A DNA stretch of 40,311 bases from NCBI GenBank assembly GCA_944322755.1, contig CALUPY010000023.1:1-40311 (forward strand). The letters run 5' to 3'. This document shows positions 2,127-31,886 of this stretch, in pieces. Positions within the stretch are counted from its first letter, which is position 1. Each line of letters starts with the position of its first letter. Both the position numbers and the translations under genes were made by a program. This stretch comes from Candidatus Gastranaerophilales bacterium. GTDB lineage: Bacteria; Cyanobacteriota; Vampirovibrionia; Gastranaerophilales; Gastranaerophilaceae. The notes below the pieces were generated by a model that saw nothing but the letters and a program-made list of their open reading frames with translations, was not told where the DNA came from and searched no databases.

Positions 2127-4466
2127 ATGGAAAATTTCGACTTACAAGTTTTAAGAAAAAGCTTACAGAGTTTGCTTCCAACAGAGAAAACTGAAAATAA
2201 TCGTCCCACTGTGGAAATAAACGCTGACGCATTATTTGAAACAGCTATTTTCTTAACAATTAACTCAGCAGCAAACGGTTCAAGCTTAGATCTGACAGAA
2301 TCAGGAGCAATTGACAAAGAAGACAATACAGAAAAAGCTGATGCAACAGATGAGAAAGATTTTGCTGCAGAATTCAAAGAAAATTTACTCAATCTTATCA
2401 ACAGCTTATCCGGTAAAAATAAGGTAGACAAAACGGAACAAAAAGAAGAAGAAAATAAAACAGATGTACAAGACAAAGATAAACTTGATGCAGAAAACGC
2501 ATTCGTTGATAAATTAGAAAACTTCCAGAAAGCAATTACTGCATTACTGACAGCATTAGCAGAAAAATTCGGTACTGATACAGAAAATAAAACAGAAGAT
2601 AAAACAGACACAGATAACTCAGTAAACAACAATAATAACAATGCAAATGCTAATGAAGGTGTTGATTCACAAAAGCTTCAGGAAGCATTACAGAAATTGT
2701 TAGATAAATTTATGAATGCTGACAAGACTGAAGAAACAGAAGAAGATAAAGAAACGAACGCTGACGGCTCAACATTAAAAACAGAAGACTTAGTCGGCGC
2801 CGATCTTGAAGAATTCGAAAAAATTGCATCTCAGTCTCCTGCTTTCCAGGCTTTAATTGAAGCATGCGGTGCTGATAAAGTATTCGAAATGCTTGATGAA
2901 GATGGTGACGGAAAATTAAGCGATGAAGAACTTGCAAAAGTAGCGGGTCTTGATGGCAACGCTGAAGACATTTCAATGGATGACTTCCTTATGAATCTTA
3001 TCACAAAAATGATGGGAGCAGAAGGCCTTGAAGAAATAACCGGTGAAGAAGATGAAGAAACCGGCGATGAAGAAATGGGTGCAGGCGCAGCAGGCGGTGC
3101 AACAGGCGCAGGCGGTACTAGCGGTGCAGGTGGTACGAGCGGCGCAGGCTCAGGCGGAGGAGTCTCCGGCATGGGCAGCAGCATGGGAGCAGCAAGCATG
3201 CCTCAAAGCAGCGAAATGACCGCAGAAGAACTTGATGAACAGATTGCAGAACTTGAAAACTCTTTAATCCCAGAAGCGGAACAAGCTATTGAAGAATTAA
3301 AAGCAGAAAAAGAACAAGCAGTCACTGACTTAAACTCACAACTTGAAGAAATCGCAGCTAATATTGAATCAAAAGAAGCTGAAATTTCAGAAGTTGACGG
3401 TCAAATTCAAGAAAAAGATACCCAGATTCAGGATGTTGACGGTCAAATTCAGGAAATTGACGGACAAATTGACGAAAAAGATGCACAAATTCAGGATGTT
3501 GATGGTCAAATTCAGGAAATTGACGGACAAATTGATGAAAAAGATGCACAAATTCAGGATGTTGATGGTCAAATCCAGGATGTTGACGGTCAAATTCAGG
3601 ATACAGAACAGCAAATCACAGAAAAAGATAACGCAATCGCTGAAAAAGACAATGCAATCACACAAAAAGATAATGCAATTGCACAAAAAGACAATGAAAT
3701 TTCAACAGTTACAAACCAAATCAGCAGCGTAAACAGTGAAATTTCTTCAATAAGTAGCAATATTTCTTCTCTCCAAAGCCAGTTGAGTTCAATTCCAACC
3801 TCAACAGGTGACGAAGCAGCTGACGCAGCTAATGCATCACAAAGAGCAGCATTACAAAATCAAATTTCACAGCTAGAACAGCAAAAGAGCGCTAAAGAAG
3901 GTGAAAAAGCCGACTTAGAAGGAAGAAAAGCTGACTTAGAAGGCGAAAAAGCTGAACTCGAAGGCGAAAAAGCTGAACTTGAAGGTGAAAAAGCTGAACT
4001 TGAAGGTGAAAAAGCTGAACTCGAAGGCAAAAAAGCTGAACTCGAAGGACAGAAAAATGAATTAGAACAGCAAAAAACTCAGCTTGAAGAAGAAAAAGCT
4101 CAGTTAGAAGAACAGAAAGAGCCGCTTGTTCAACAAAAAGAACAGCTTGAAGAAGAAAAAGCTCAGTTAGAAGAACAGAAAGAGCCGCTTGTTCAACAGA
4201 AAGAACAGCTTGAAGAAGAAAAAGCTCAGTTAGAAGAACAGAAAGAAGGCCTTGTCCAAGAAAAAGAAGAACTAGAAGCACAAAGAACTGATGTTGAAGC
4301 TGAACTTCAACAGACAGAAGAATCATATGATACACAAATAGAAGAAGCTGAAGCTGAACTTAATGCTCACAAAGAAGAACTTGAAGAACTGAAAGAGCAG
4401 AAAGAAGAAGTAGAAGCTGACGAAGACAAAGAAAAAGAAGAAGATGATGAAGATCATCAACATTAA
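2127..4466 (+). CDS. Large EF-hand and heptad-repeat coiled-coil rod protein
   Basis: The protein has 779 residues and begins shortly after AAAGGA. There is no signal peptide. Residues 1-245 are acidic, with a stretch of asparagines (about 167-174). A canonical calcium-binding EF-hand loop lies at 257-268 (D257, D259, D261, K263, S265, E268), followed by a degenerate second loop around 276-287. Residues 317-360 are a Gly/Ala/Ser-rich hinge. From about 365 to 770 nearly everything is heptad coiled coil, in three repeat blocks: QIQDVDG/QIQEIDG/QIDEKDA units (424-495), ELEGEKA units (591-643) and three 21-residue units (652-714). The tail is very acidic and ends in HQH. A scaffold or structural filament is the natural guess, but I know of no named family. 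A strong terminator follows. Confidence 0.85.
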   Translation: MENFDLQVLRKSLQSLLPTEKTENNRPTVEINADALFETAIFLTINSAANGSSLDLTESGAIDKEDNTEKADATDEKDFAAEFKENLLNLINSLSGKNKVDKTEQKEEENKTDVQDKDKLDAENAFVDKLENFQKAITALLTALAEKFGTDTENKTEDKTDTDNSVNNNNNNANANEGVDSQKLQEALQKLLDKFMNADKTEETEEDKETNADGSTLKTEDLVGADLEEFEKIASQSPAFQALIEACGADKVFEMLDEDGDGKLSDEELAKVAGLDGNAEDISMDDFLMNLITKMMGAEGLEEITGEEDEETGDEEMGAGAAGGATGAGGTSGAGGTSGAGSGGGVSGMGSSMGAASMPQSSEMTAEELDEQIAELENSLIPEAEQAIEELKAEKEQAVTDLNSQLEEIAANIESKEAEISEVDGQIQEKDTQIQDVDGQIQEIDGQIDEKDAQIQDVDGQIQEIDGQIDEKDAQIQDVDGQIQDVDGQIQDTEQQITEKDNAIAEKDNAITQKDNAIAQKDNEISTVTNQISSVNSEISSISSNISSLQSQLSSIPTSTGDEAADAANASQRAALQNQISQLEQQKSAKEGEKADLEGRKADLEGEKAELEGEKAELEGEKAELEGEKAELEGKKAELEGQKNELEQQKTQLEEEKAQLEEQKEPLVQQKEQLEEEKAQLEEQKEPLVQQKEQLEEEKAQLEEQKEGLVQEKEELEAQRTDVEAELQQTEESYDTQIEEAEAELNAHKEELEELKEQKEEVEADEDKEKEEDDEDHQH
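3396..3611 (+). repeat. In-frame 21-bp heptad repeats (QIQ-DVDG type)
   Basis: Tandem units of seven codons encode alternating QIQDVDG, QIQEIDG and QIDEKDA heptads. DNA copies are nearly identical, differing by a few third-position changes. They code for the first block of the rod and are a likely place for copy-number change by slippage or recombination. Confidence 0.9.
3897..4049 (+). repeat. In-frame 21-bp heptad repeats (EKAELEG type)
   Basis: About seven consecutive seven-codon units encode EKADLEG, RKADLEG, then several EKAELEG, KKAELEG and QKNELEQ. The middle copies differ only by silent changes such as GAAGGC/GAAGGT and CTC/CTT. This suggests recent local expansion under protein-level constraint. 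Confidence 0.9.
4080..4268 (+). repeat. Three tandem 63-bp in-frame repeats
   Basis: Units at 4080-4142, 4143-4205 and 4206-4268 each encode 21 residues: QLEEEKA, QLEEQKE, then PLVQQKE or GLVQEKE. Units one and two differ by a single silent base, and the third has diverged at its end. Each unit is three heptads, so gain or loss of a copy keeps the coiled-coil phase. Confidence 0.93.
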
Positions 4467-23362: not shown

Positions 23363-23566
23363 ATGTATATAATAGAGTTAATTGTAAAGCTGCTAAATAA
23401 GAAAAAAGATAAAAAAATTAACATTCCTCAGACGGATTATGAAAAGTGCGAGCATGTTTTTTTACCGGTAGACAGCACTAATGAAGTACTGGCCTGCACA
23501 AAATGCGGTTATATAATACACAGAAAAGATATGGACATAAAAACCAATAATCCGTTCCAAAATTAA
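23363..23566 (+). CDS. Small zinc-motif protein, 67 residues
   Basis: The frame starts MYIIELIVKLLNKKKDKK and holds four potential metal ligands: CEH near residue 29-31, CTKC at about 46-49 and a His near 54. This is like a small zinc ribbon. ATG at 23363 is preferred. A longer reading from TTG at 23327 would use the TTGTAC promoter-like box as codons. There is no ribosome binding site, and TATAAT at 23354-23359 lies only three bases before the ATG. TATAAT at 23314-23319 could instead give a start near 23326. The stop codon overlaps that of the 1221-residue gene on the other strand. I recognise no family. Confidence 0.6.
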   Translation: MYIIELIVKLLNKKKDKKINIPQTDYEKCEHVFLPVDSTNEVLACTKCGYIIHRKDMDIKTNNPFQN

Positions 23567-26500
23567 AGTTTTATATCATTCAGCTGGCAATAGGCTTTAA
23601 AGGATGCAAAATCATTCTGAAGCTCAGCTTCTATGGCCGGAATTTCCATATCTTTTGCCATTACAAGAGCTTTTTTATAAGTTTCGACAATTTTCTGTGC
23701 ATAATTATTTTTATTCTGCGGTTTTTTATGCATCATTTCTTCCAGATATTTTGCATAAAGTTCATAGAGCATTACTTTGTGAAGCTTCATACCATATGTC
23801 TTAACAATAAGCAGTGCTTTTTCTATATACATTCTGGCTGCTTCCATATCGCCTTTTATCATATATATTTCGGCAATAAGGCGTTTGTAGAGAACCATGA
23901 AATAGTAGTTGTTAATTTTGGGATTTTTAGCAACATCAAGAGCTTTTTGTGTAATATCCAGAGCTTTGTCCGTGCCGTCAGTCACAAGTGTGACCTTAGC
24001 AATGTAATACCAGCACAATAAAGCACCCACAGCTATTTTTTCTCTCGCAAAAATAGTAACCTGTTCGTTAAATATATCAAGAGCTTTTGAAAGGTTGTCC
24101 TCCTCCTGCAGTACTTTTCCAAGGAAAGTTTTCAAAAGATTCTTTATTAGTACATCGTTATAGTTGTTTGCGAATGTAACAACAGAGAATAATTCTTCTT
24201 TTATATTGGCCCAGTCACGTTTAAGAATCTTATTCAGAATATTTATAAAATTCCACTGGGAAATAATTTCAGGATCTACTATCTCATTGGCTGTTTTTTG
24301 GGAAATTTCTATAAGTATTCCCTCAGATTTTTTGATTATACCCAGCATGGTGTATGCAAGAGCCTTTGAAAGTGTAACCCTTAGCAGATAATTTTTATTT
24401 GTAATATGATTTTTGGCAACAATTTCGTCAATGAAACTAAGCACACTCAAACATTTTTTATTTCCCTGAATAATTAAAGCGTTTGCAACAATCAAATTGC
24501 ATTCAAGCCATGTTTCATAAATTATACTCATAGGAATATCTTTTGTCGGAATAGATTGAGATATTGCCTGTTCAATTATAGGAATAATTTCATTATTAGC
24601 CGTATTGTAAATTTCTTCAGAATTTCCTATACTTAATATAGCCCGTAGTTTTTTGAACTTTATCAGCGCACTTTCCAGTTTGTATTCAGGGTAATCAATG
24701 AGTTTTAAAACAGTGTCAACCGTTTCTATTACACCGTGATAATTACCTATTGCCTCGCAGCTTTTTGAAAGATAACCGGCAAGTTCTATGATTTTAGGCT
24801 TGTTGCCCAATTTTACCGCAGTAGACAGAGAATTAGAGAGATAATTCATTGCTTCTGATGGTTTTGAAAGATACAGAAGTTTTCCCAGACGTTCCTGAAT
24901 GTTTGTGATAACAAGATTGTTTGTTTCAGGATTAATTTCCTGTGCTATTTTAAGACACTGTTTCTGAGAAAGCGCCCATAGATGCTCATCGCCTAAGTAT
25001 GCACAGAGTTTTACATTGTCTGTCCAAATATTCATTGCAAGCAGTTTTTGGTTCAGATTCTGTGCAACAAGAGCTTTGAGGGCATTGCTTGATAAAGTAT
25101 AATTTCCGATTACATCGAATATTCTTTCATTCAAAAGAGTAAAATCTTCGCTCATTTTTGCTCGTTCATAAACAAATTTCCACATCAGTGTATTTTTAAA
25201 TGCAAACATATTGTCATTAAACTGCGCCAAATAAGCATAGTTCACAAGCATCTGTATAACATTTCTGAAATCATCAAAACTGATTTTCATCACATGTTCG
25301 AGAAGTTTAATATTAAACTTGTTACCCATAATAGCGGCCGTACATAAAGTTCTGTATACGGTCGGGAACTTTTCTTTTAGTATATTGAGTCTTTTCGTAA
25401 GTATCTCAAAAAGGTTCTTCGGCATTTTCAAAGCAATCGGAGTCGTTTTGTATATCAGTTCATTTTCTTTTGTTTCAAAAGCTCCGTTTTCATTCATCAG
25501 AACAAGCATTTGTTCTATAAACGCACTATTGCCTTTTGAATTTTGATAAATTTGTTTAAAAACATCTTCCGGTATAGGATTAGTACCGTTCATAAAAAGT
25601 CTTGTCAAATTTATGGCATGCTCAAGAGTGAGTTTTGAAAGAAAGACATCCTGATACTCATTTTCAGCAATTTTCTCAGAATAGAAATATCCCTGAGAAA
25701 TTCTTTTGTCTTTATATGCAACAACAAGCTTTATGTTATCAGAGAGATAATCTTCATTGATAAAATGCATAAGAAATTCATATGACGCTCCGTCTATCAT
25801 ATCGAAATCATCAATAACGATAATCAGTTTTGACCGCTGTGAAATTTCAAGAATAACTTTTTCCAAAAGTTTAAAACTGTATTCTTTATTTACCAATATT
25901 TCTTCAAAATGCGCGCTTAAAGAAGGATAAAGAAAATTGAACAAATCTCCTGTTTCAGAATCAGTTAAAGTCGGAACAACTTTTTGCAGCAGTTTTTTTG
26001 TTTCTTTCTGGAATTCATTTGACATATTGGAGTAATTTGGTAGGTTAAAAAATGTCAAAAACATTTCCTGAAAAATACCAAACGGGCTAATCTGGGAATT
26101 CGCGCTGCATTCACCCCACAGCCACGCATATTTCATCGGCAATAGTTCATTGAACAGATATCTGAGTACAGTAGATTTTCCGTAACCTTCCGGGCTGCTA
26201 AGCCCTATAATTTTTTTGTCATTGCTATTAATAGCAGCAACCATCAAATTTTTTGATTTCAGCTGATCAATTTCCTGCATCGAATCATCAAGAACTTCCT
26301 GAACAGTATTTTCCTGAAGCTCATCATCAGCCGGTTCTGCTATTTCTTCTTCCCTATCAGACGAAACCAAAGGCTCATTTTTTTTTTCTTCGGCCTGTAC
26401 AACAGGTATACCCTGTGCCGGCTTCGGAGTTTGTTGAACAGCTTGCTCCTGCACAGGAGGGTTTATATTTGGGGCAGAGTCCTGAGAAGCCGGAGGCATA

Positions 26501-27228
26501 GGCTGAGCAGACGGCTCATTTACAGGAGTGCTTTGTTCCCCGTAAAAATACTCATCATCATCTGCTAATGTGCTCAAATCAAAAAAGCCATCATCCTCTT
26601 CATAATTATTGGAACTTTCAGTTGTATTATCCGCATTTTTGACCGGAATATCATCAGCAAATTCTTCTTCTTCCTGTTTTTCTATCAGAGCCTCGTAATT
26701 ATCCGAAAAATCTTCGACCTCTTCTGCTTTTTTTTCTTCCTGTACAGACTCCGGGGTGTCAAGTTCGATTTCAGGGAGTTCTTCTGTCAACATCTGTGTA
26801 TTGTTTTCTTCTGTAACAGGAGAATCAAACGACTGAACAGAAGATTGAAGCTCAATTTTTTGTTCCTCAAATAGTGTATAAGGCTTTGCTTCCTGTATTG
26901 ACGGAAAAAAATCATCTTTCGGTGCTTCAATAGTTTCTTGAACAGTTTCTGTCTCTTTTAAGTCTTCTATTTTGGGTGATACAGTTTCTTCTTCAATTTT
27001 TGGCACAAATTCACATCCGCATTTTCTGCAATTTTTTGCATCAGGATGATTTGCACTTCTGCATGATGGACAATATTTTATCAATTGTCTGTGGCAGTGT
27101 GCACAGTATTCAGCGGTAATAAGGTTCAGCGATTTGCAGCCGGGGCAAACTGTCTGAACTTTAGCACCGCAAAAATTACATCTTAAACTATTTGCATCTA
27201 TTTCTTTTTTGCATCGAATGCAATGCAT
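23563..27228 (-). CDS. Large triple-zinc-ribbon, P-loop ATPase and TPR signalling protein
   Basis: The 1221-residue protein begins with three CxxC...CxxC zinc ribbons (Cys 3, 6, 17, 20; 28, 31, 42, 45; 53, 56, 67, 70). A disordered acidic, Pro/Gln-rich linker follows (about 75-315). Next is a P-loop ATPase of the AAA_16/STAND kind: Walker A SPEGYGKST near 345-353, where Ser replaces the first Gly, and Walker B LIIVIDDFD at 468-476. From about 640 to 1200 it is helical with TPR-like repeats. This layout matches STAND regulators and cyclase-linked ATPase/TPR proteins, but I find neither a cyclase domain nor a DNA-binding helix-turn-helix. It is the last gene in the direction of the sigma/anti-sigma genes, 62 bases after the sigma gene. 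It has no clear ribosome binding site. A signal-sensing scaffold is inferred. Confidence 0.82.
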   Translation of the reverse strand: MHCIRCKKEIDANSLRCNFCGAKVQTVCPGCKSLNLITAEYCAHCHRQLIKYCPSCRSANHPDAKNCRKCGCEFVPKIEEETVSPKIEDLKETETVQETIEAPKDDFFPSIQEAKPYTLFEEQKIELQSSVQSFDSPVTEENNTQMLTEELPEIELDTPESVQEEKKAEEVEDFSDNYEALIEKQEEEEFADDIPVKNADNTTESSNNYEEDDGFFDLSTLADDDEYFYGEQSTPVNEPSAQPMPPASQDSAPNINPPVQEQAVQQTPKPAQGIPVVQAEEKKNEPLVSSDREEEIAEPADDELQENTVQEVLDDSMQEIDQLKSKNLMVAAINSNDKKIIGLSSPEGYGKSTVLRYLFNELLPMKYAWLWGECSANSQISPFGIFQEMFLTFFNLPNYSNMSNEFQKETKKLLQKVVPTLTDSETGDLFNFLYPSLSAHFEEILVNKEYSFKLLEKVILEISQRSKLIIVIDDFDMIDGASYEFLMHFINEDYLSDNIKLVVAYKDKRISQGYFYSEKIAENEYQDVFLSKLTLEHAINLTRLFMNGTNPIPEDVFKQIYQNSKGNSAFIEQMLVLMNENGAFETKENELIYKTTPIALKMPKNLFEILTKRLNILKEKFPTVYRTLCTAAIMGNKFNIKLLEHVMKISFDDFRNVIQMLVNYAYLAQFNDNMFAFKNTLMWKFVYERAKMSEDFTLLNERIFDVIGNYTLSSNALKALVAQNLNQKLLAMNIWTDNVKLCAYLGDEHLWALSQKQCLKIAQEINPETNNLVITNIQERLGKLLYLSKPSEAMNYLSNSLSTAVKLGNKPKIIELAGYLSKSCEAIGNYHGVIETVDTVLKLIDYPEYKLESALIKFKKLRAILSIGNSEEIYNTANNEIIPIIEQAISQSIPTKDIPMSIIYETWLECNLIVANALIIQGNKKCLSVLSFIDEIVAKNHITNKNYLLRVTLSKALAYTMLGIIKKSEGILIEISQKTANEIVDPEIISQWNFINILNKILKRDWANIKEELFSVVTFANNYNDVLIKNLLKTFLGKVLQEEDNLSKALDIFNEQVTIFAREKIAVGALLCWYYIAKVTLVTDGTDKALDITQKALDVAKNPKINNYYFMVLYKRLIAEIYMIKGDMEAARMYIEKALLIVKTYGMKLHKVMLYELYAKYLEEMMHKKPQNKNNYAQKIVETYKKALVMAKDMEIPAIEAELQNDFASFKAYCQLNDIKL

Positions 27229-27290
27229 GATAATATACCAACTTATTACATTTATAGAAATATTATATTATAAAAAATTTAAATCTGTAT

Positions 27291-27902
27291 CTATTTGTTA
27301 AAATGAGATTTTACGATTTCAGCTATTTCAAGAAGTCTTTTACTTACTTCAGACTGCGAAAGCTGGGTTATTTCAGCGATTTCACGTTGTTTCTTTTCTT
27401 TAACGTATCTTAAAAAGAATATTCTTAAATATTCTTTATTCGGATTATTTTTATGTGCAACAAGCACTATATCCACAACTTTTTGCAGTAAATCTTTTCT
27501 TACTATTCTTTCTTCAAAATTATTTTTCGGATCCGAAACATTGTAAAGATTTACAATCTGAGGCTCAGCTACAGCAACAGGGACAGATGATACGGGCATA
27601 GCCGCTTCCCGCACGAACTGCTGCGCCGGCGTAGGATCCAGCAGTACCTCGCGGGTGGATACATACTTATTTGAATGGCGTCTGATTCTGCCGGAGGACC
27701 TTAATACCGTAAGAATGGATGTATTCACAACTTTTGCAAGATAACTTTCAAAATTTTTAATTTCATTGTTATCAAACAATGTATAAGAACGTTGATAAGC
27801 TTCAGAGCAAAAGTCCTCAAACAAATCTTCGTTTCCGATATATTTATTATTTAATCTAACAAGTCTCTCTATTATTGTCCGTTGTTCCTGAATTGTATTC
27901 AA
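27291..27902 (-). CDS. ECF-like RNA polymerase sigma factor
   Basis: The 203-residue protein has the two-domain layout of extracytoplasmic-function sigma factors. A region-2-like N-terminal part (about 10-90: LFEDFCSEAYQRSYTLF, ESYLAKVVNTSILTVLRSSGRIRRH) is followed by a Pro/Val-rich linker (about 100-115). A region-4-like C-terminal part (about 135-200) ends in a helix-turn-helix, KQREIAEITQLSQSEVSKRLLEI. The start appears to be TTG at 27902 with AGGG four bases upstream, and there is no ATG in frame nearby. It follows the anti-sigma-like gene by 80 bases on the same strand. That pairing strongly supports a regulated sigma factor. The target promoters are unknown. Sequence divergence from classical ECF groups keeps the group uncertain. 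Confidence 0.82.
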   Translation of the reverse strand: MNTIQEQRTIIERLVRLNNKYIGNEDLFEDFCSEAYQRSYTLFDNNEIKNFESYLAKVVNTSILTVLRSSGRIRRHSNKYVSTREVLLDPTPAQQFVREAAMPVSSVPVAVAEPQIVNLYNVSDPKNNFEERIVRKDLLQKVVDIVLVAHKNNPNKEYLRIFFLRYVKEKKQREIAEITQLSQSEVSKRLLEIAEIVKSHFNK

Positions 27903-27982
27903 TTTCCCTAACCCATCTGATTATAAACACAGGGATAACCTGTTAATTTTATAATAACACAGATTTTAAAATTAGAAAAATT

Positions 27983-30892
27983 TTAGAAATTTATTATCAA
28001 AGAAAGATTATAATCCCCCTTAACATCTTTTATATTCGGGGCATTTACGTATTTTAACGTTTCTTTAATACTTCGTAATACTACATTATCAATCTGCTCT
28101 GAACCACTGGAATCAAGAACCTGTAAATTCTTTATTTCATTATTTTTTGTTACCTGGAAATTAAGGTGAATTTTGTTATTATATGCAAATTCTGTAGTAT
28201 TTGCCAAATCATTTTGAAGGTTTATCTGTAAATTTTTGCCTGCAACCTGCAGATAATTTTTGAACGCATCATTTTGCGCAAGTTTATCATTCACATTCCA
28301 GGATATCTTTGTAATAGTCAAAGCAGACGGCTGCTCAGAGAATACGTTTGTCATTGATTTATTAATATCTTGAGGAACTGCCGGTTCTTCTTCTGCCTCA
28401 GGATTTTTATTGCCAAAGTCAAATAAAGCAGCACCATCAGTAGAATTTTCATCACTATCCGGCTGTCCTGGCAAGGATTTTCCAAACTTCATGAAGTATG
28501 TTGTGGTTCCTCCGGCAAGCAGTATCAGAAAAACAAATAAGCTTACGGCCAGTTTCTTTGTCTTGCTTACAGCTGATTTTACAACAGGAGGCTCTTCTAC
28601 TGTAATTTTACTTTCCTGTCCGCCTGACGGATTTGTTTCGTCATAAAGCATTTCAATATCACCATTTTCCGGCTGCGATGAAAGCTTTTGTGCAATTTGT
28701 TTCGGAACAGAAGTTGCTCCAGCGGAATCTTCATTCACAGTATGGACGCTGTCATCGGCAAGCATTGACATCAATTCGTCATCCATAATGCTCTGCAGTT
28801 CAGGAGCAATTCCACTATCTTCCTGCAGCTGCTGAGATGAAGAAGTAACAGTTTCAGCCTGCATCGAAGAAACAGCCGTATCCTCTTCAACCAAATCGTC
28901 ATCACTGGCATCTAGCAGACTTCTCAAATCATCGTCAAACATTGCCTGCAAATCTTCGCTCAACTCTTCTTTTTCTTCACCTTTATCATTATCAGTTTCT
29001 TCCATAACAGGGGCAGCAATTTGTGCAGTTATCCCTTCTTCCTCGGTTTCAGGTTTTGCATCAATCTCCGGCTCTGATGTTAAAGAATCATTCACAAGAT
29101 TTTCATCCGGAACAATATCCGCTGTTTCAGCAAGTATACTTTCGTTTTTTTCAGGTTCTTCTGCAGCCGGTATTATAGAATCTGACGGCAAATCTTCGAT
29201 TTCTTCTTTTATTTCCAAATCAGAATCATCATCAGTTAAAAGTTCCGGTTCATCACCTAAAAGCAGCAAATGATCATTTACAGGCTCTTCTTCAAGCATA
29301 ACATCCTCTGGTTCCCGTATTTCTTCCAGAGGAGAGGAACTTTCTTCTTCAAGGATTTCATCATCTGCATCAATCATATCCAATGTAATATCTTCATTCT
29401 TCGGTTCTTGCGGCAGCTCCTGTGCATTTATTTCTTCATCAGGTGTTAACTCCGAAAGTTCAAATGAATCAGTTTGAACAGAGTTGTCTTGATTTTTTCC
29501 GTCAATGATATTGAATGTGTCCGTGGAATCAGATATGGAGTCAAGGGAACTGTCTGACTCCGCGGGAAACGATTCGGCACTGACGCCTGACTCCTCTTGC
29601 ATTCCTGATATAGTTATATCATTTTCCGCTTCATCATCTGCAAAATCCAACAAAAAGTCATCCTCGGTATTATTAGAACCCAAAAGCTCATCAGTACTAT
29701 CTTTCAATTCAGGAGTACCTGTTGTTTTTTCTGTGTCCTGCGGTTGTTGTATATCTAAAATGTCATCTCCTGTTTTAATCTCATTTACAACTGAGTCATC
29801 AGCATCGGACACGATGGATAATTCAGGTATATTTTCCACTACATTAATAACAGTTTCACCCGATTCTGTTCCCGCAATTTCTTCCGCGTTCAATACATCA
29901 GCAGCGCCCAGTTCTAATAGCGTTTCCTGAGACATTTTTTCGTCATTATTTTCTTCCGGATATTCGAGCAAAAACGGGGTTTCTTCTTTTTCTTCGTTGT
30001 CAGGTAAAACTTCTTCTGCTGCAAATTCCGGAGTATTAATCAGGTCTTCTGTCTCTTCACTTGGTTCACCGGCATAATCATCTGTGTCCAAAGGCTGACC
30101 GATAATAAGGGTCTGCTCTTCATCTTCCTCCGGTAAAAAGACGGGCTGCGCTTCAGGCAGGCTATATGCTCTTGTCAAAGCACCCGTCAAAATATCAAGA
30201 GTCTGGTCATTTAACAGGTCAGGATACTTATTCAGCTGTCTTACAACATTATCAAACTCATTCATCTCGGACAATTTTTCGCGGCAGAAAGAGCATTTCA
30301 TTACATGTTGAATAAAGAACACTTTTTCACTGTCAGAAATTTCTCCGTCAAGAAAAGCAATAGCAAGCTCTTCTATCTTTGCATGCGCTTCTTTTGAAAA
30401 AATCTGCTGTTTTTTTTCAATTTTGCTGAGTGCATTTTTTAATCCGCTGATAGGTTTGAGCAGATTTATATCATATTCAAGATATTCAGAATCACTTTTG
30501 ATCTGAGGAAGTTGTGATGATTCTATATACCCGAGAGGTTCTATATTTTCAACATCGTCTGTCATTCTCACAACCAAATATATTTCAGGAGTTGCATAAA
30601 ATTTTTCATGTGATTTCGGAATACAGAAAACATTTTCATCAAACACAACTCTCACATCAACCCTGATATCATCAGAATACAAATCAGCAATTTCCAATAC
30701 ATCATCAAGAGAAGTTATTTTAAATAAACTGTTTTTATGCTTAAGTTTAAGCTCCCCATCATCAAGAAGGTCGCTAACAGACATTGCTGCCACACTCAAA
30801 ACAAAAACTCTCTTTCTAATTTCAGCAGACGAAAGTTTAATTGCTAAATTTTTTGCATTGTCTAAAACAAGTTTATTCACCTTTTTCATCAT
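27983..30892 (-). CDS. Membrane anti-sigma-like protein with zinc motif, long acidic linker and TonB-C-like tail
   Basis: The 969-residue protein has four parts. Residues 1-165 are a folded alpha/beta region of unknown family. Residues 170-240 resemble a zf-HC2 anti-sigma domain, with H196, C200 and C203 in the HxxxCxxC zinc motif. About 250-780 is extremely acidic and Pro/Ser-rich. It contains a repeated short motif, LQAMFDDDLRSLL at 648-660 and LQSIMDDELMSML at 699-711. One membrane span lies at 781-801. The outer part ends in a domain (about 853-969) with TonB C-terminal features: NFQVTKNNEIKNLQVLDSSG and VLRSIKETLKYVNAP. The N terminus is therefore cytoplasmic. It likely holds the sigma factor encoded just downstream and reads envelope state. 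AGGAGAG precedes the ATG. Confidence 0.82.
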   Translation of the reverse strand: MMKKVNKLVLDNAKNLAIKLSSAEIRKRVFVLSVAAMSVSDLLDDGELKLKHKNSLFKITSLDDVLEIADLYSDDIRVDVRVVFDENVFCIPKSHEKFYATPEIYLVVRMTDDVENIEPLGYIESSQLPQIKSDSEYLEYDINLLKPISGLKNALSKIEKKQQIFSKEAHAKIEELAIAFLDGEISDSEKVFFIQHVMKCSFCREKLSEMNEFDNVVRQLNKYPDLLNDQTLDILTGALTRAYSLPEAQPVFLPEEDEEQTLIIGQPLDTDDYAGEPSEETEDLINTPEFAAEEVLPDNEEKEETPFLLEYPEENNDEKMSQETLLELGAADVLNAEEIAGTESGETVINVVENIPELSIVSDADDSVVNEIKTGDDILDIQQPQDTEKTTGTPELKDSTDELLGSNNTEDDFLLDFADDEAENDITISGMQEESGVSAESFPAESDSSLDSISDSTDTFNIIDGKNQDNSVQTDSFELSELTPDEEINAQELPQEPKNEDITLDMIDADDEILEEESSSPLEEIREPEDVMLEEEPVNDHLLLLGDEPELLTDDDSDLEIKEEIEDLPSDSIIPAAEEPEKNESILAETADIVPDENLVNDSLTSEPEIDAKPETEEEGITAQIAAPVMEETDNDKGEEKEELSEDLQAMFDDDLRSLLDASDDDLVEEDTAVSSMQAETVTSSSQQLQEDSGIAPELQSIMDDELMSMLADDSVHTVNEDSAGATSVPKQIAQKLSSQPENGDIEMLYDETNPSGGQESKITVEEPPVVKSAVSKTKKLAVSLFVFLILLAGGTTTYFMKFGKSLPGQPDSDENSTDGAALFDFGNKNPEAEEEPAVPQDINKSMTNVFSEQPSALTITKISWNVNDKLAQNDAFKNYLQVAGKNLQINLQNDLANTTEFAYNNKIHLNFQVTKNNEIKNLQVLDSSGSEQIDNVVLRSIKETLKYVNAPNIKDVKGDYNLSLIINF

Positions 30893-30926
30893 TTTTAAGT
30901 TCTCTCCTCACTATACCTGGAGCCGA

Positions 30927-31244
30927 TTATACTTCCCGCCATTCCTGCACTTCCGGTAAAACCGGAAATTCCGATTCCATTTTTTTCAGCAAAAGCCTGA
31001 AAAACGGAGATTTTTTTTGTATATAAACCTCATATTCTGCTTTGAGTGCGCGAGTTTCGGCTTGTTGTAATTTGTTATTCCGGTAATTTTTGTCTTCTTT
31101 TTTACCTCTAATTCCATCCTCAAATTTTTCGGCTGCCGTGTTCAAAAAGGGGTGTTTGTTCTTTGGGGCGTCATTTAGATTCTGCTCCAGACAGTACAAC
31201 TTTTCAAACGCGGCTAATACCGCAAGTGATTTGTCAAGTTCCAT
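30927..31244 (-). CDS. Hypothetical helical protein upstream of the anti-sigma gene, 105 residues
   Basis: GAGGAAA lies before the ATG at a normal distance, and the stop is 34 bases before the anti-sigma-like gene, so it is probably the first gene of that transcript. The product is charged and helical (RNNKLQQAETRALKAEYEVYIQKK) with one cysteine and no signal peptide or membrane span. A short basic hydrophobic stretch (FFRLLLKKM) lies near the C terminus. I recognise no family. Its place suggests a role with the sigma/anti-sigma pair. Confidence 0.65.
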   Translation of the reverse strand: MELDKSLAVLAAFEKLYCLEQNLNDAPKNKHPFLNTAAEKFEDGIRGKKEDKNYRNNKLQQAETRALKAEYEVYIQKKSPFFRLLLKKMESEFPVLPEVQEWREV

Positions 31245-31345
31245 ACTTGTTTCCTCTTTTGTGAGTGAAGCACGGGTAATAAAAAAATCACTCTATTAAC
31301 TTAGATTACATTTCGAAAAAAAATATTCCAAAATAAAAAAAATAG

Positions 31346-31484: not shown

Positions 31485-31886
31485 ATGTCAGTCAACCTTT
31501 CATCGGGAATTGTACCATTGTCACAGGAAACTATTTCCAGACCGCCTAAATATACACAGGCAAATACCCAGCAGCAACCAACAGCAAGCACTCCAATGAC
31601 CACAGATGAAACTGCTCCTAAGAGCAGCCACTGGTTTTTGAAAACAATCGGAGCTATTGTTGTAATCGGCGCGGCACTCGGACTGGGCAGAAAATATGTT
31701 CCTGCTTTGAAAAATATCAACCTTTCGCAAGCTGCAGATGAAGGTGCAAAATGGTACCAAAAAGGTCTCAGATATGTTGCACAGGCCGGTGAATATATCA
31801 ACAACAAAGCAGTTACAAGCTGGAACTGGATAAAAGCATTGCCGTCTAAAATCGGTATCGGAAAAAAAGCAGAAGCCGCAGAATAA
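31485..31886 (+). CDS. Small single-span membrane protein, 133 residues
   Basis: AAGGAG precedes the ATG, and a strong terminator follows. Residues 1-47 are polar and rich in Thr, Ser, Gln and Pro. A glycine-rich membrane segment (about 51-68: FLKTIGAIVVIGAALGLG) is followed by a basic residue pair and a mixed amphipathic tail with several tryptophans (GAKWYQKG, SWNWIKALPSKIGIGKK). There is no cleavable signal. Topology is probably one span with the basic side in the cytoplasm. I recognise no family. The N-terminal style matches the 125-residue gene at 22560, hinting at a lineage-specific group. Confidence 0.72.
   Translation: MSVNLSSGIVPLSQETISRPPKYTQANTQQQPTASTPMTTDETAPKSSHWFLKTIGAIVVIGAALGLGRKYVPALKNINLSQAADEGAKWYQKGLRYVAQAGEYINNKAVTSWNWIKALPSKIGIGKKAEAAE

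What the first reader, a model, noticed from the sequence alone, without database searches (positions are those of the whole stretch)
23563..31244. Possible new envelope-to-transcription signalling cassette
Four genes lie in one direction: a 105-residue helical protein, a 969-residue anti-sigma-like membrane protein, an ECF-like sigma factor, and a 1221-residue protein with three zinc ribbons, a P-loop ATPase and TPR repeats. The zinc motif HxxxCxxC followed by a sigma gene is the classic anti-sigma/sigma pairing, although anti-sigma first is the less common order. Both big proteins pair an N-terminal zinc module with a long acidic disordered linker. I know of no described system with this set.
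Basis: partly seen in the sequence, partly recalled or inferred. Interest (0 to 1): 0.8.

Follow-up and report, generated by a model that had tools for sequence, protein, structure and literature searches.

The report
Membrane switch controlling a sigma factor
In nearly all gut relatives of cyanobacteria examined, a gene trio encodes a transcription switch and what looks like its membrane-anchored lock, built from parts not previously seen together and driven by a promoter found once per genome; it gives a testable role to DUF1822, a cyanobacterial protein family of unknown function.

Summary
In detail: four codirectional genes lie at 23563-31244. Three form a real, conserved cassette of Candidatus Gastranaerophilales (gut relatives of cyanobacteria). 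They were found in 110-115 of 117 sampled genomes of the order, and lay adjacent in the same order in 65 of 80 fetched loci. The fourth, the 105-residue gene, is restricted to the window's genus. The 203-residue protein is an ECF sigma factor. The 969-residue protein is most likely its membrane anti-sigma factor. Its architecture is one I found nowhere described: DUF1822, then an RsiW-like anti-sigma domain, a ~515-residue acidic linker, one transmembrane helix and a TonB-type C-terminal domain. DUF1822 is cyanobacterial, of unknown function, and has a predicted PD-(D/E)XK-like fold. In true cyanobacteria DUF1822 is also encoded beside sigma-like genes, a link one paper mentions in passing. 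A two-part promoter, GGAAT-N15-G(T/C)nnTC, lies just before the operon in three families. In 17 of 18 genomes searched it is the only perfect (15) or a one-mismatch (2) site, so the loop looks self-regulated. Sigma/anti-sigma binding, the signal, and the role of the third protein (zinc ribbons, ATPase, TPR) are inferred. The zinc motif is not universal. New variant of a known kind.

The parts
27983..30892 (-). 969-aa predicted membrane anti-sigma factor, first conserved gene of the cassette
   Evidence: ORF; homologue in 112/117 genomes of the order; one TM in 104/113 homologues
30413..30877 (-). DUF1822 domain (residues 6-160)
   Evidence: PF08852 hit in 65/69 homologues, best 2.7e-17, above cut-off in many order relatives; hhalign to cyanobacterial DUF1822 97.7%, E 1.6e-12; PD-(D/E)XK-like fold, Z up to 8.7
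30173..30400 (-). class I anti-sigma (zinc) domain, residues 165-240, H196-C200-C203
   Evidence: zf-HC2 in 53/69 homologues; RsiW E 0.0063, RslA 0.029, DdvA 0.071 by sequence; RsiW Z 7.1, RslA Z 6.5
28613..30157 (-). acidic, probably disordered linker, residues 246-760
   Evidence: 31% D+E, 3% K+R
28496..28552 (-). single transmembrane helix, residues 781-799
   Evidence: hydropathy
27986..28318 (-). TonB-type C-terminal domain, residues 859-969
   Evidence: TonB_2 26/26 and TonB_C 25/26 homologues
27291..27902 (-). ECF sigma factor (sigma2 about 1-82, sigma4 about 129-203)
   Evidence: TIGR02937 54.9 > 42.9 bits, 60/60 homologues; AlphaFold model; the 50 fold matches shown are nearly all sigma-factor entries
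23563..27228 (-). 1221-aa protein: three zinc ribbons, acidic linker, AAA/STAND-like ATPase, TPR
   Evidence: Pfam, six CxxC and Walker motifs; homologue in 115/117 genomes
31303..31329 (-). predicted ECF-type promoter GGAATATTTTTTTTCGAAATGTAATCT (GGAAT-N15-GTAATC)
   Evidence: in 70/115 operon upstreams against 4/576 control upstreams; only 0-mismatch site of this genome
30927..31244 (-). 105-aa orphan ORF between promoter and anti-sigma gene; genus-restricted, not a conserved part
   Evidence: only own genome among 117; present in L204-L206; no phage hit
31485..31886 (+). divergent 133-aa small protein with one hydrophobic stretch, conserved neighbour
   Evidence: 44 homologues at the same position

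Best explanation
The cassette is an ECF sigma factor held by a membrane-anchored class I anti-sigma factor of a new architecture. The 969-aa protein has its N-terminus in the cytoplasm. Its zinc anti-sigma domain (165-240) clamps the sigma factor between sigma2 and sigma4, assisted by the neighbouring DUF1822 domain. A long acidic tether and one transmembrane helix connect it to a TonB-type domain in the periplasm, which senses an envelope state. The signal frees the sigma factor, by an unknown step (shape change or proteolysis). The sigma factor then transcribes its own operon from the GGAAT-N15-G(T/C)nnTC promoter. This makes more anti-sigma factor (brake), more sigma factor (positive feedback) and the zinc-ribbon ATPase/TPR protein, the likely cytoplasmic output or modulator. 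Shown computationally: gene order, sigma fold, anti-sigma-domain fold, DUF1822, TM, TonB-type domain, promoter conservation and its near-uniqueness per genome. Inferred: binding, topology, signal, release, recognition of this promoter by this sigma factor, role of the ATPase.
For: Sigma: TIGR02937 above cut-off, 60/60 homologues, two helical domains joined by a low-confidence linker, and fold matches led by ECF sigma factors, including structures bound to anti-sigma factors. Anti-sigma domain: the three best PDB sequence matches of its profile are anti-sigma factors; RsiW Z 7.1 and RslA Z 6.5; the Hx3Cx2C lies across predicted helices 2 and 3 as described for this class (PMC7406223). Pairing: adjacent in 65/80 loci; SIG and MEM are missing together more often than chance (p 0.0013). 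DUF1822 beside sigma-like genes also in true cyanobacteria. Envelope: one TM in 104/113, TonB_2 in 26/26. Autoregulation: promoter in 70/115 upstreams against 4/576 control ORFs. A perfect match lies only before this operon in 15 of 18 genomes, two more have it there with one mismatch, and one (G033) showed no such site; every other site checked in the second set lies inside coding sequence. Autoregulation and a co-encoded anti-sigma factor are usual for ECFs (PMC8103513).
Against: No complex was predicted or measured. The zinc ligands are lost in about half of the order-wide sample. In a few genera the three genes are scattered, and in families f2, f3, f4 and f6 the ATPase gene is elsewhere. 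No target other than the operon itself was found, which is unusual for a stress sigma factor. The promoter was not found upstream of 45/115 operons, and other sigma factors of the genome (11 more above the model cut-off) could read it.
Confidence: 0.74

Rival explanations
1. The 969-aa protein is a TonB- or TolA-like force transducer that happens to be co-encoded with a sigma factor; its zinc module binds something other than sigma.
For: The C-terminal domain is TonB-type in all homologues tested; the genome has three MotA/ExbB-family genes.
Against: No TonB-dependent receptor barrel is detectable in the genome. The zinc module's best relatives are anti-sigma factors by sequence and fold. The DUF1822-sigma neighbourhood also occurs in cyanobacteria, where the DUF1822 proteins examined lack the TonB-type part.
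Confidence: 0.12
2. DUF1822 itself is the sigma partner (anti-sigma or co-activator), and the zinc domain is a secondary, dispensable addition.
For: DUF1822 is the part shared with sigma-adjacent cyanobacterial proteins, none of which carries HxxxCxxC in the 20 checked. DUF1822 residues (D70, D79, R81, P92, Y105, G121) are kept where the zinc ligands are lost.
Against: The anti-sigma-domain region persists in zinc-less members (R204 kept in 33/40), and zinc-free class I anti-sigma domains are common (PMC7406223).
Confidence: 0.25
3. The cassette is a stress or conflict (cell-death-like) system of the kind described around DUF1822 and ECF sigma in EACC2-caspase neighbourhoods; the ATPase/TPR protein is its sensor-effector.
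For: A published note of ECF sigma + DUF1822 in such neighbourhoods (PMC8195603); a cyanobacterial DUF1822 operon seen here with CHAT and CHASE2; a STAND-like ATPase with TPR here.
Against: Found in almost every genome sampled of the order and usually single copy, unlike mobile defence loci; no PADLOC hit; no caspase, CHAT or EACC domain by Pfam in the window proteins.
Confidence: 0.1

Closest known systems
RsiW/SigW of Bacillus subtilis and other class I (ASDI) anti-sigma / ECF pairs
   Same: ECF sigma with only sigma2 and sigma4; adjacent membrane anti-sigma with an Hx3Cx2C three-helix bundle; conserved ECF-type promoter before the operon.
   Different: Anti-sigma gene first; anti-sigma domain internal, after DUF1822; ~515-aa acidic linker; TonB-type periplasmic domain; third gene for a zinc-ribbon ATPase/TPR protein.
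DUF1822 (PF08852) operons of cyanobacteria with ECF-like sigma (mentioned in PMC8195603)
   Same: DUF1822 gene next to an ECF-like sigma gene.
   Different: There DUF1822 is soluble, without zinc motif, TM or TonB-type domain, follows sigma, and is sometimes followed by CHASE2/CHAT proteins.
FecI/FecR-type cell-surface signalling
   Same: Membrane anti-sigma with a periplasmic part and an ECF sigma (own knowledge of the family).
   Different: No TonB-dependent receptor barrel detectable in the genome; zinc-type anti-sigma domain; operon appears autoregulated, which FecI-like ECFs are not (PMC8103513).
GltJ/AgmX-like and BlaR1-TonB fusions (from memory, a lead only)
   Same: Cytoplasmic zinc or signalling module, TM, TonB-type periplasmic domain.
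   Different: No sigma partner of this kind; not compared here.

Membership tests
ECF (group IV) sigma factor | sigma2 and sigma4 domains only | tested here: met
   TIGR02937 54.9 > 42.9 bits; model with two helical domains; fold matches to ECF sigma factors
ECF (group IV) sigma factor | linker between sigma2 and sigma4 shorter than 50 residues | tested here: met
   about residues 83-128 in the window, borderline; not met in genus g15, where the sigma homologue is 276-623 aa
ECF (group IV) sigma factor | autoregulated promoter with AAC-type -35 and CGT-type -10 (features as in PMC8103513) | tested here: inconclusive
   conserved GGAAT-N15-G(T/C)nnTC before the operon; the letters differ from AAC/CGT and recognition was not measured
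Class I (ASDI) anti-sigma factor | three-helix bundle plus helix 4, with Hx3Cx2C across helices 2 and 3 when zinc-binding | tested here: met
   helices 167-181, 187-199, 201-222, then short helices 225-244; RsiW and RslA matches; the match to RsiW is modest (Z 7.1, rmsd 6.7)
Class I (ASDI) anti-sigma factor | binds and inhibits the neighbouring ECF sigma | not testable with these tools
   no complex prediction or assay available
DUF1822 (PF08852) | match to the family profile | tested here: met
   65/69 homologues match and many exceed the cut-off; hhalign 97.7%, E 1.6e-12. The window's own copy alone is not detected by the Pfam model
TonB energy transducer | TonB C-terminal domain | tested here: met
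   TonB_2 22.7 bits against 22 for the window domain; 26/26 homologues
TonB energy transducer | serves TonB-dependent outer-membrane receptors | tested here: not met
   no PF00593 match in the 2.19 Mb, 99.97% complete genome
FecIR cell-surface signalling | cognate TonB-dependent receptor | tested here: not met
   none adjacent in the window
EACC2-caspase / CHAT conflict cassette | caspase-like (CHAT or similar) effector in the operon | tested here: not met
   no such Pfam domain in the window proteins
PD-(D/E)XK nuclease superfamily (for DUF1822) | core fold and catalytic D...(D/E)xK | tested here: inconclusive
   fold matches Z 7-8.7 to many members but Foldseek E > 0.01; conserved D70...D79-x-R81, arginine instead of lysine

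The most novel reading that the evidence does not exclude
DUF1822 founds a phylum-wide class of ECF sigma regulators built on a retired nuclease (PD-(D/E)XK) fold. In gut cyanobacterial relatives it was fused to a zinc anti-sigma domain, a long acidic tether and a TonB-type periplasmic domain. This gives a self-contained switch whose sigma factor serves, by sequence motif, only its own operon, so that the ATPase/TPR protein is the sole output.
Probability: 0.3. Interest if true: 0.8.

Novelty: new variant of a known kind. Interest (0 to 1): 0.62.

Why it matters
A near-universal regulatory cassette of an uncultured gut lineage gets a mechanism that can be tested in standard hosts. DUF1822, a cyanobacterial family of unknown function found in only two held papers, gets a concrete hypothesis as a sigma-factor regulator that can be checked in tractable cyanobacteria. 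A TonB-type domain attached to an anti-sigma factor, in a genome without detectable TonB-dependent receptors, suggests a use of that domain in signalling rather than in energy transfer. The near-unique promoter predicts one clear target to assay.

Tried and rejected
1) First own-genome promoter search had the spacer one base too long and found nothing; corrected. 2) Regulon search: the near-matches checked in the second genome set lie inside coding sequence and numbers in both sets are not far above the reversed-pattern controls, so no further targets are claimed. 3) The 105-aa gene as a cassette member: rejected; no phage hit. 4) Defence system: no PADLOC hit. 5) FecIR / TonB receptor reading: no receptor barrel. 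6) The sigma next to the ATPase paralogue on contig C21 as a second cassette: its neighbour reads as a histidine kinase, so rejected. 7) Neighbouring genes as a functional clue: they look like ordinary housekeeping genes that change between genera (by eye). 8) No held paper was found that combines an anti-sigma factor with a TonB C-terminal domain and a zinc finger, or describes Melainabacteria sigma factors of this kind by title and abstract. 9) The PD-(D/E)XK match is kept only as a lead (Foldseek E > 0.01).

Full report
WHAT WAS CHECKED. The four ORFs are at the stated coordinates on the minus strand, with gaps of 34, 80 and 62 nt, compatible with one transcript. The window lies in a 2.19 Mb, 99.97% complete genome in 43 contigs. 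The closest named relatives are Candidatus Gastranaerophilales, non-photosynthetic gut relatives of cyanobacteria.

CONSERVATION. In an order-wide sample of 117 genomes, the sigma gene was found in 110, the N-terminal part of the 969-aa protein in 112 and the ATPase/TPR protein in 115. The 105-aa protein was found only in the window's genome. In 80 loci fetched by a scan of 84,980 species genomes, the order membrane protein - sigma - ATPase is intact and codirectional in 65; several of the rest have a diverged or truncated upstream gene or lie near contig ends. The 105-aa gene recurs at the same place only in the three closest relatives, L204-L206. A divergent small gene (31485-31886) is conserved at the same position in 44 genomes or loci. 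In families f2, f3, f4 and f6 the membrane and sigma genes mostly stay together (not in f6) while the ATPase gene lies elsewhere. In genera g18, g19 and g23 the genes are scattered. Absence of sigma and absence of the membrane protein coincide more than expected (3 genomes lack both; p 0.0013).

THE SIGMA FACTOR. Pfam alone is sub-threshold. The curated NCBI model TIGR02937 is exceeded (54.9 against 42.9 bits), and 60 of 60 homologues match it. The AlphaFold model has two confident helical domains (residues 2-82 and 129-202) joined by a low-confidence linker. The best fold matches are led by ECF sigma factors in polymerase or anti-sigma complexes; sigma4 matches E. coli sigmaE region 4 on its -35 DNA (TM 0.61 by target length) and SigR region 4 (0.68). 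Foldseek E-values are only about 0.003, because the relative placement of the two domains is not defined.

THE MEMBRANE PROTEIN. Four parts are recognisable. (1) Residues about 6-160 are DUF1822. The window copy alone is not detected by the Pfam model. But 65 of 69 homologues match it (best 2.7e-17), relatives in the same family exceed the curated cut-off, and profile-profile comparison with 18 cyanobacterial DUF1822 proteins gives 97.7%, E 1.6e-12 over 148 columns. The predicted structure (mean pLDDT 88, pTM 0.81) resembles PD-(D/E)XK nucleases (Eco15I Z 8.7, NhoI 8.0, DpnI 8.0, Hjc 7.9, PvuII 7.1). Since Foldseek E is above 0.01 and such Z values can be a shared arrangement only, this is a lead. 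The conserved D70, D79 and R81 look like a D...D-x-R remnant. (2) Residues about 165-240 are a class I anti-sigma domain. The best PDB sequences for its profile are RsiW (E 0.0063), RslA (0.029) and DdvA (0.071); folds RsiW Z 7.1 and RslA Z 6.5; zf-HC2 in 53 of 69 homologues. The ligands are present in 23 of 44 order-wide members, including families f2, f3 and f4, and absent in f5, f7 and many f1 genera. This fits ancestral presence and repeated loss, but no tree was built. Published class I groups also mix zinc and non-zinc members (PMC7406223). (3) Residues 246-760 are 31% acidic and 3% basic. (4) One TM (781-799) is followed by a TonB-type domain. No TonB-dependent receptor barrel is detectable in this genome, though ExbB/MotA-family genes are.

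THE THIRD PROTEIN. Three zinc ribbons (six CxxC in 102 of 107 homologues), an AAA_16/STAND-like ATPase region and TPRs. A paralogue on contig C21 carries the same ribbons and TPR, an ATPase region without a recognisable P-loop and, by eye, a degenerate cyclase-like stretch. Its link to the sigma factor rests on gene order and the shared promoter alone.

THE PROMOTER. Aligned upstream regions show TTGGAATATTTT-N9-TG(T/C)nnTCT, that is GGAAT-N15-G(T/C)nnTC, before the first gene. GGAATATT occurs within 130 nt in 70 of 115 upstreams, against 4 of 576 upstreams of other genes in the same loci and a mean of 1.3 in shuffles; 63 carry the full two-part motif, in families f1, f2 and f4. The 115 upstreams include related and partly duplicated genomes, so the counts are not independent events. 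In genome-wide searches of 18 genomes the perfect match lies before this operon in 15; in two more the site is there with one mismatch; in one (G033) the operon site was not recovered. Near matches elsewhere are not far above the reversed-pattern control in number, and in the second set they lie inside coding sequence. The simplest reading is autoregulation with no other detectable target of the same motif. That this sigma factor is the one that reads it is inference; 11 other genes of the genome also exceed the sigma model cut-off.

RELATION TO CYANOBACTERIA. In true cyanobacteria, sigma-like genes precede DUF1822 in many loci (profile matches E 1e-4 to 1e-10). Some are clear ECF-type (L188 by Pfam; L189 69.8 bits), others degenerate or undetected by the models. 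One following gene is a CHAT/CHASE2 protein. The 20 DUF1822 proteins checked there lack the zinc motif, and 19 of 20 lack a predicted TM. The only held discussion of this pairing is one sentence in Kaur et al. 2021 (PMC8195603). The 2024 survey of cyanobacterial sigma factors contains no mention of Melainabacteria in its text (PMC11119718).

CONCLUSION. The anatomy supports a membrane anti-sigma / ECF sigma switch of new architecture with a self-directed promoter. Sensing by the TonB-type domain, release and output are inferred. It is a new variant of a known kind.

Noticed in passing
L147:6897-8645 (+), L148:8533-9363 (-): In genus g15 the sigma homologue is 276-623 aa; the gene read here (582 aa) carries long acidic repeats between what look like sigma2 and sigma4. 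Function as a sigma factor is doubtful; Pfam finds nothing in it.
   Followed up: partly
L112:6581-10057 (+), own genome contig C21: Paralogue of the ATPase/TPR protein with the same zinc ribbons, a degenerate cyclase-like stretch and no recognisable P-loop, next to a histidine-kinase-like gene and another ECF-type sigma.
   Followed up: partly
L184-L203 (cyanobacterial genomes): Cyanobacterial DUF1822 falls into two visibly different types: one with the 'VADL...GxLECRP' core shared with the window protein, one without it.
   Followed up: no
L118:10514-11092, L119:12924-13508, L151:10239-11972: Where the ATPase gene is elsewhere (families f3, f4), the gene after sigma encodes a secreted or membrane protein without Pfam match above threshold; possible alternative envelope outputs.
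   Followed up: partly
upstream of the cassette in L207-L229: A second conserved block, TGAAACATTTTGTTACATTATAACA, with inverted repeat TGTTA-N5-TAACA, lies just upstream of the ECF-type promoter; possible operator or the divergent gene's promoter.
   Followed up: no
window 2127-4466 (+): 779-aa protein with long coiled-coil-like repeats (QIDEKDAQIQDVDGQ..., EGEKAELEGEKAELEG...), acidic N-terminal half.
   Followed up: no
L228: MAG labelled 'uncultured Clostridia' carries the cassette with clear Gastranaerophilales identity (57%); probable mislabel or contamination.
   Followed up: no
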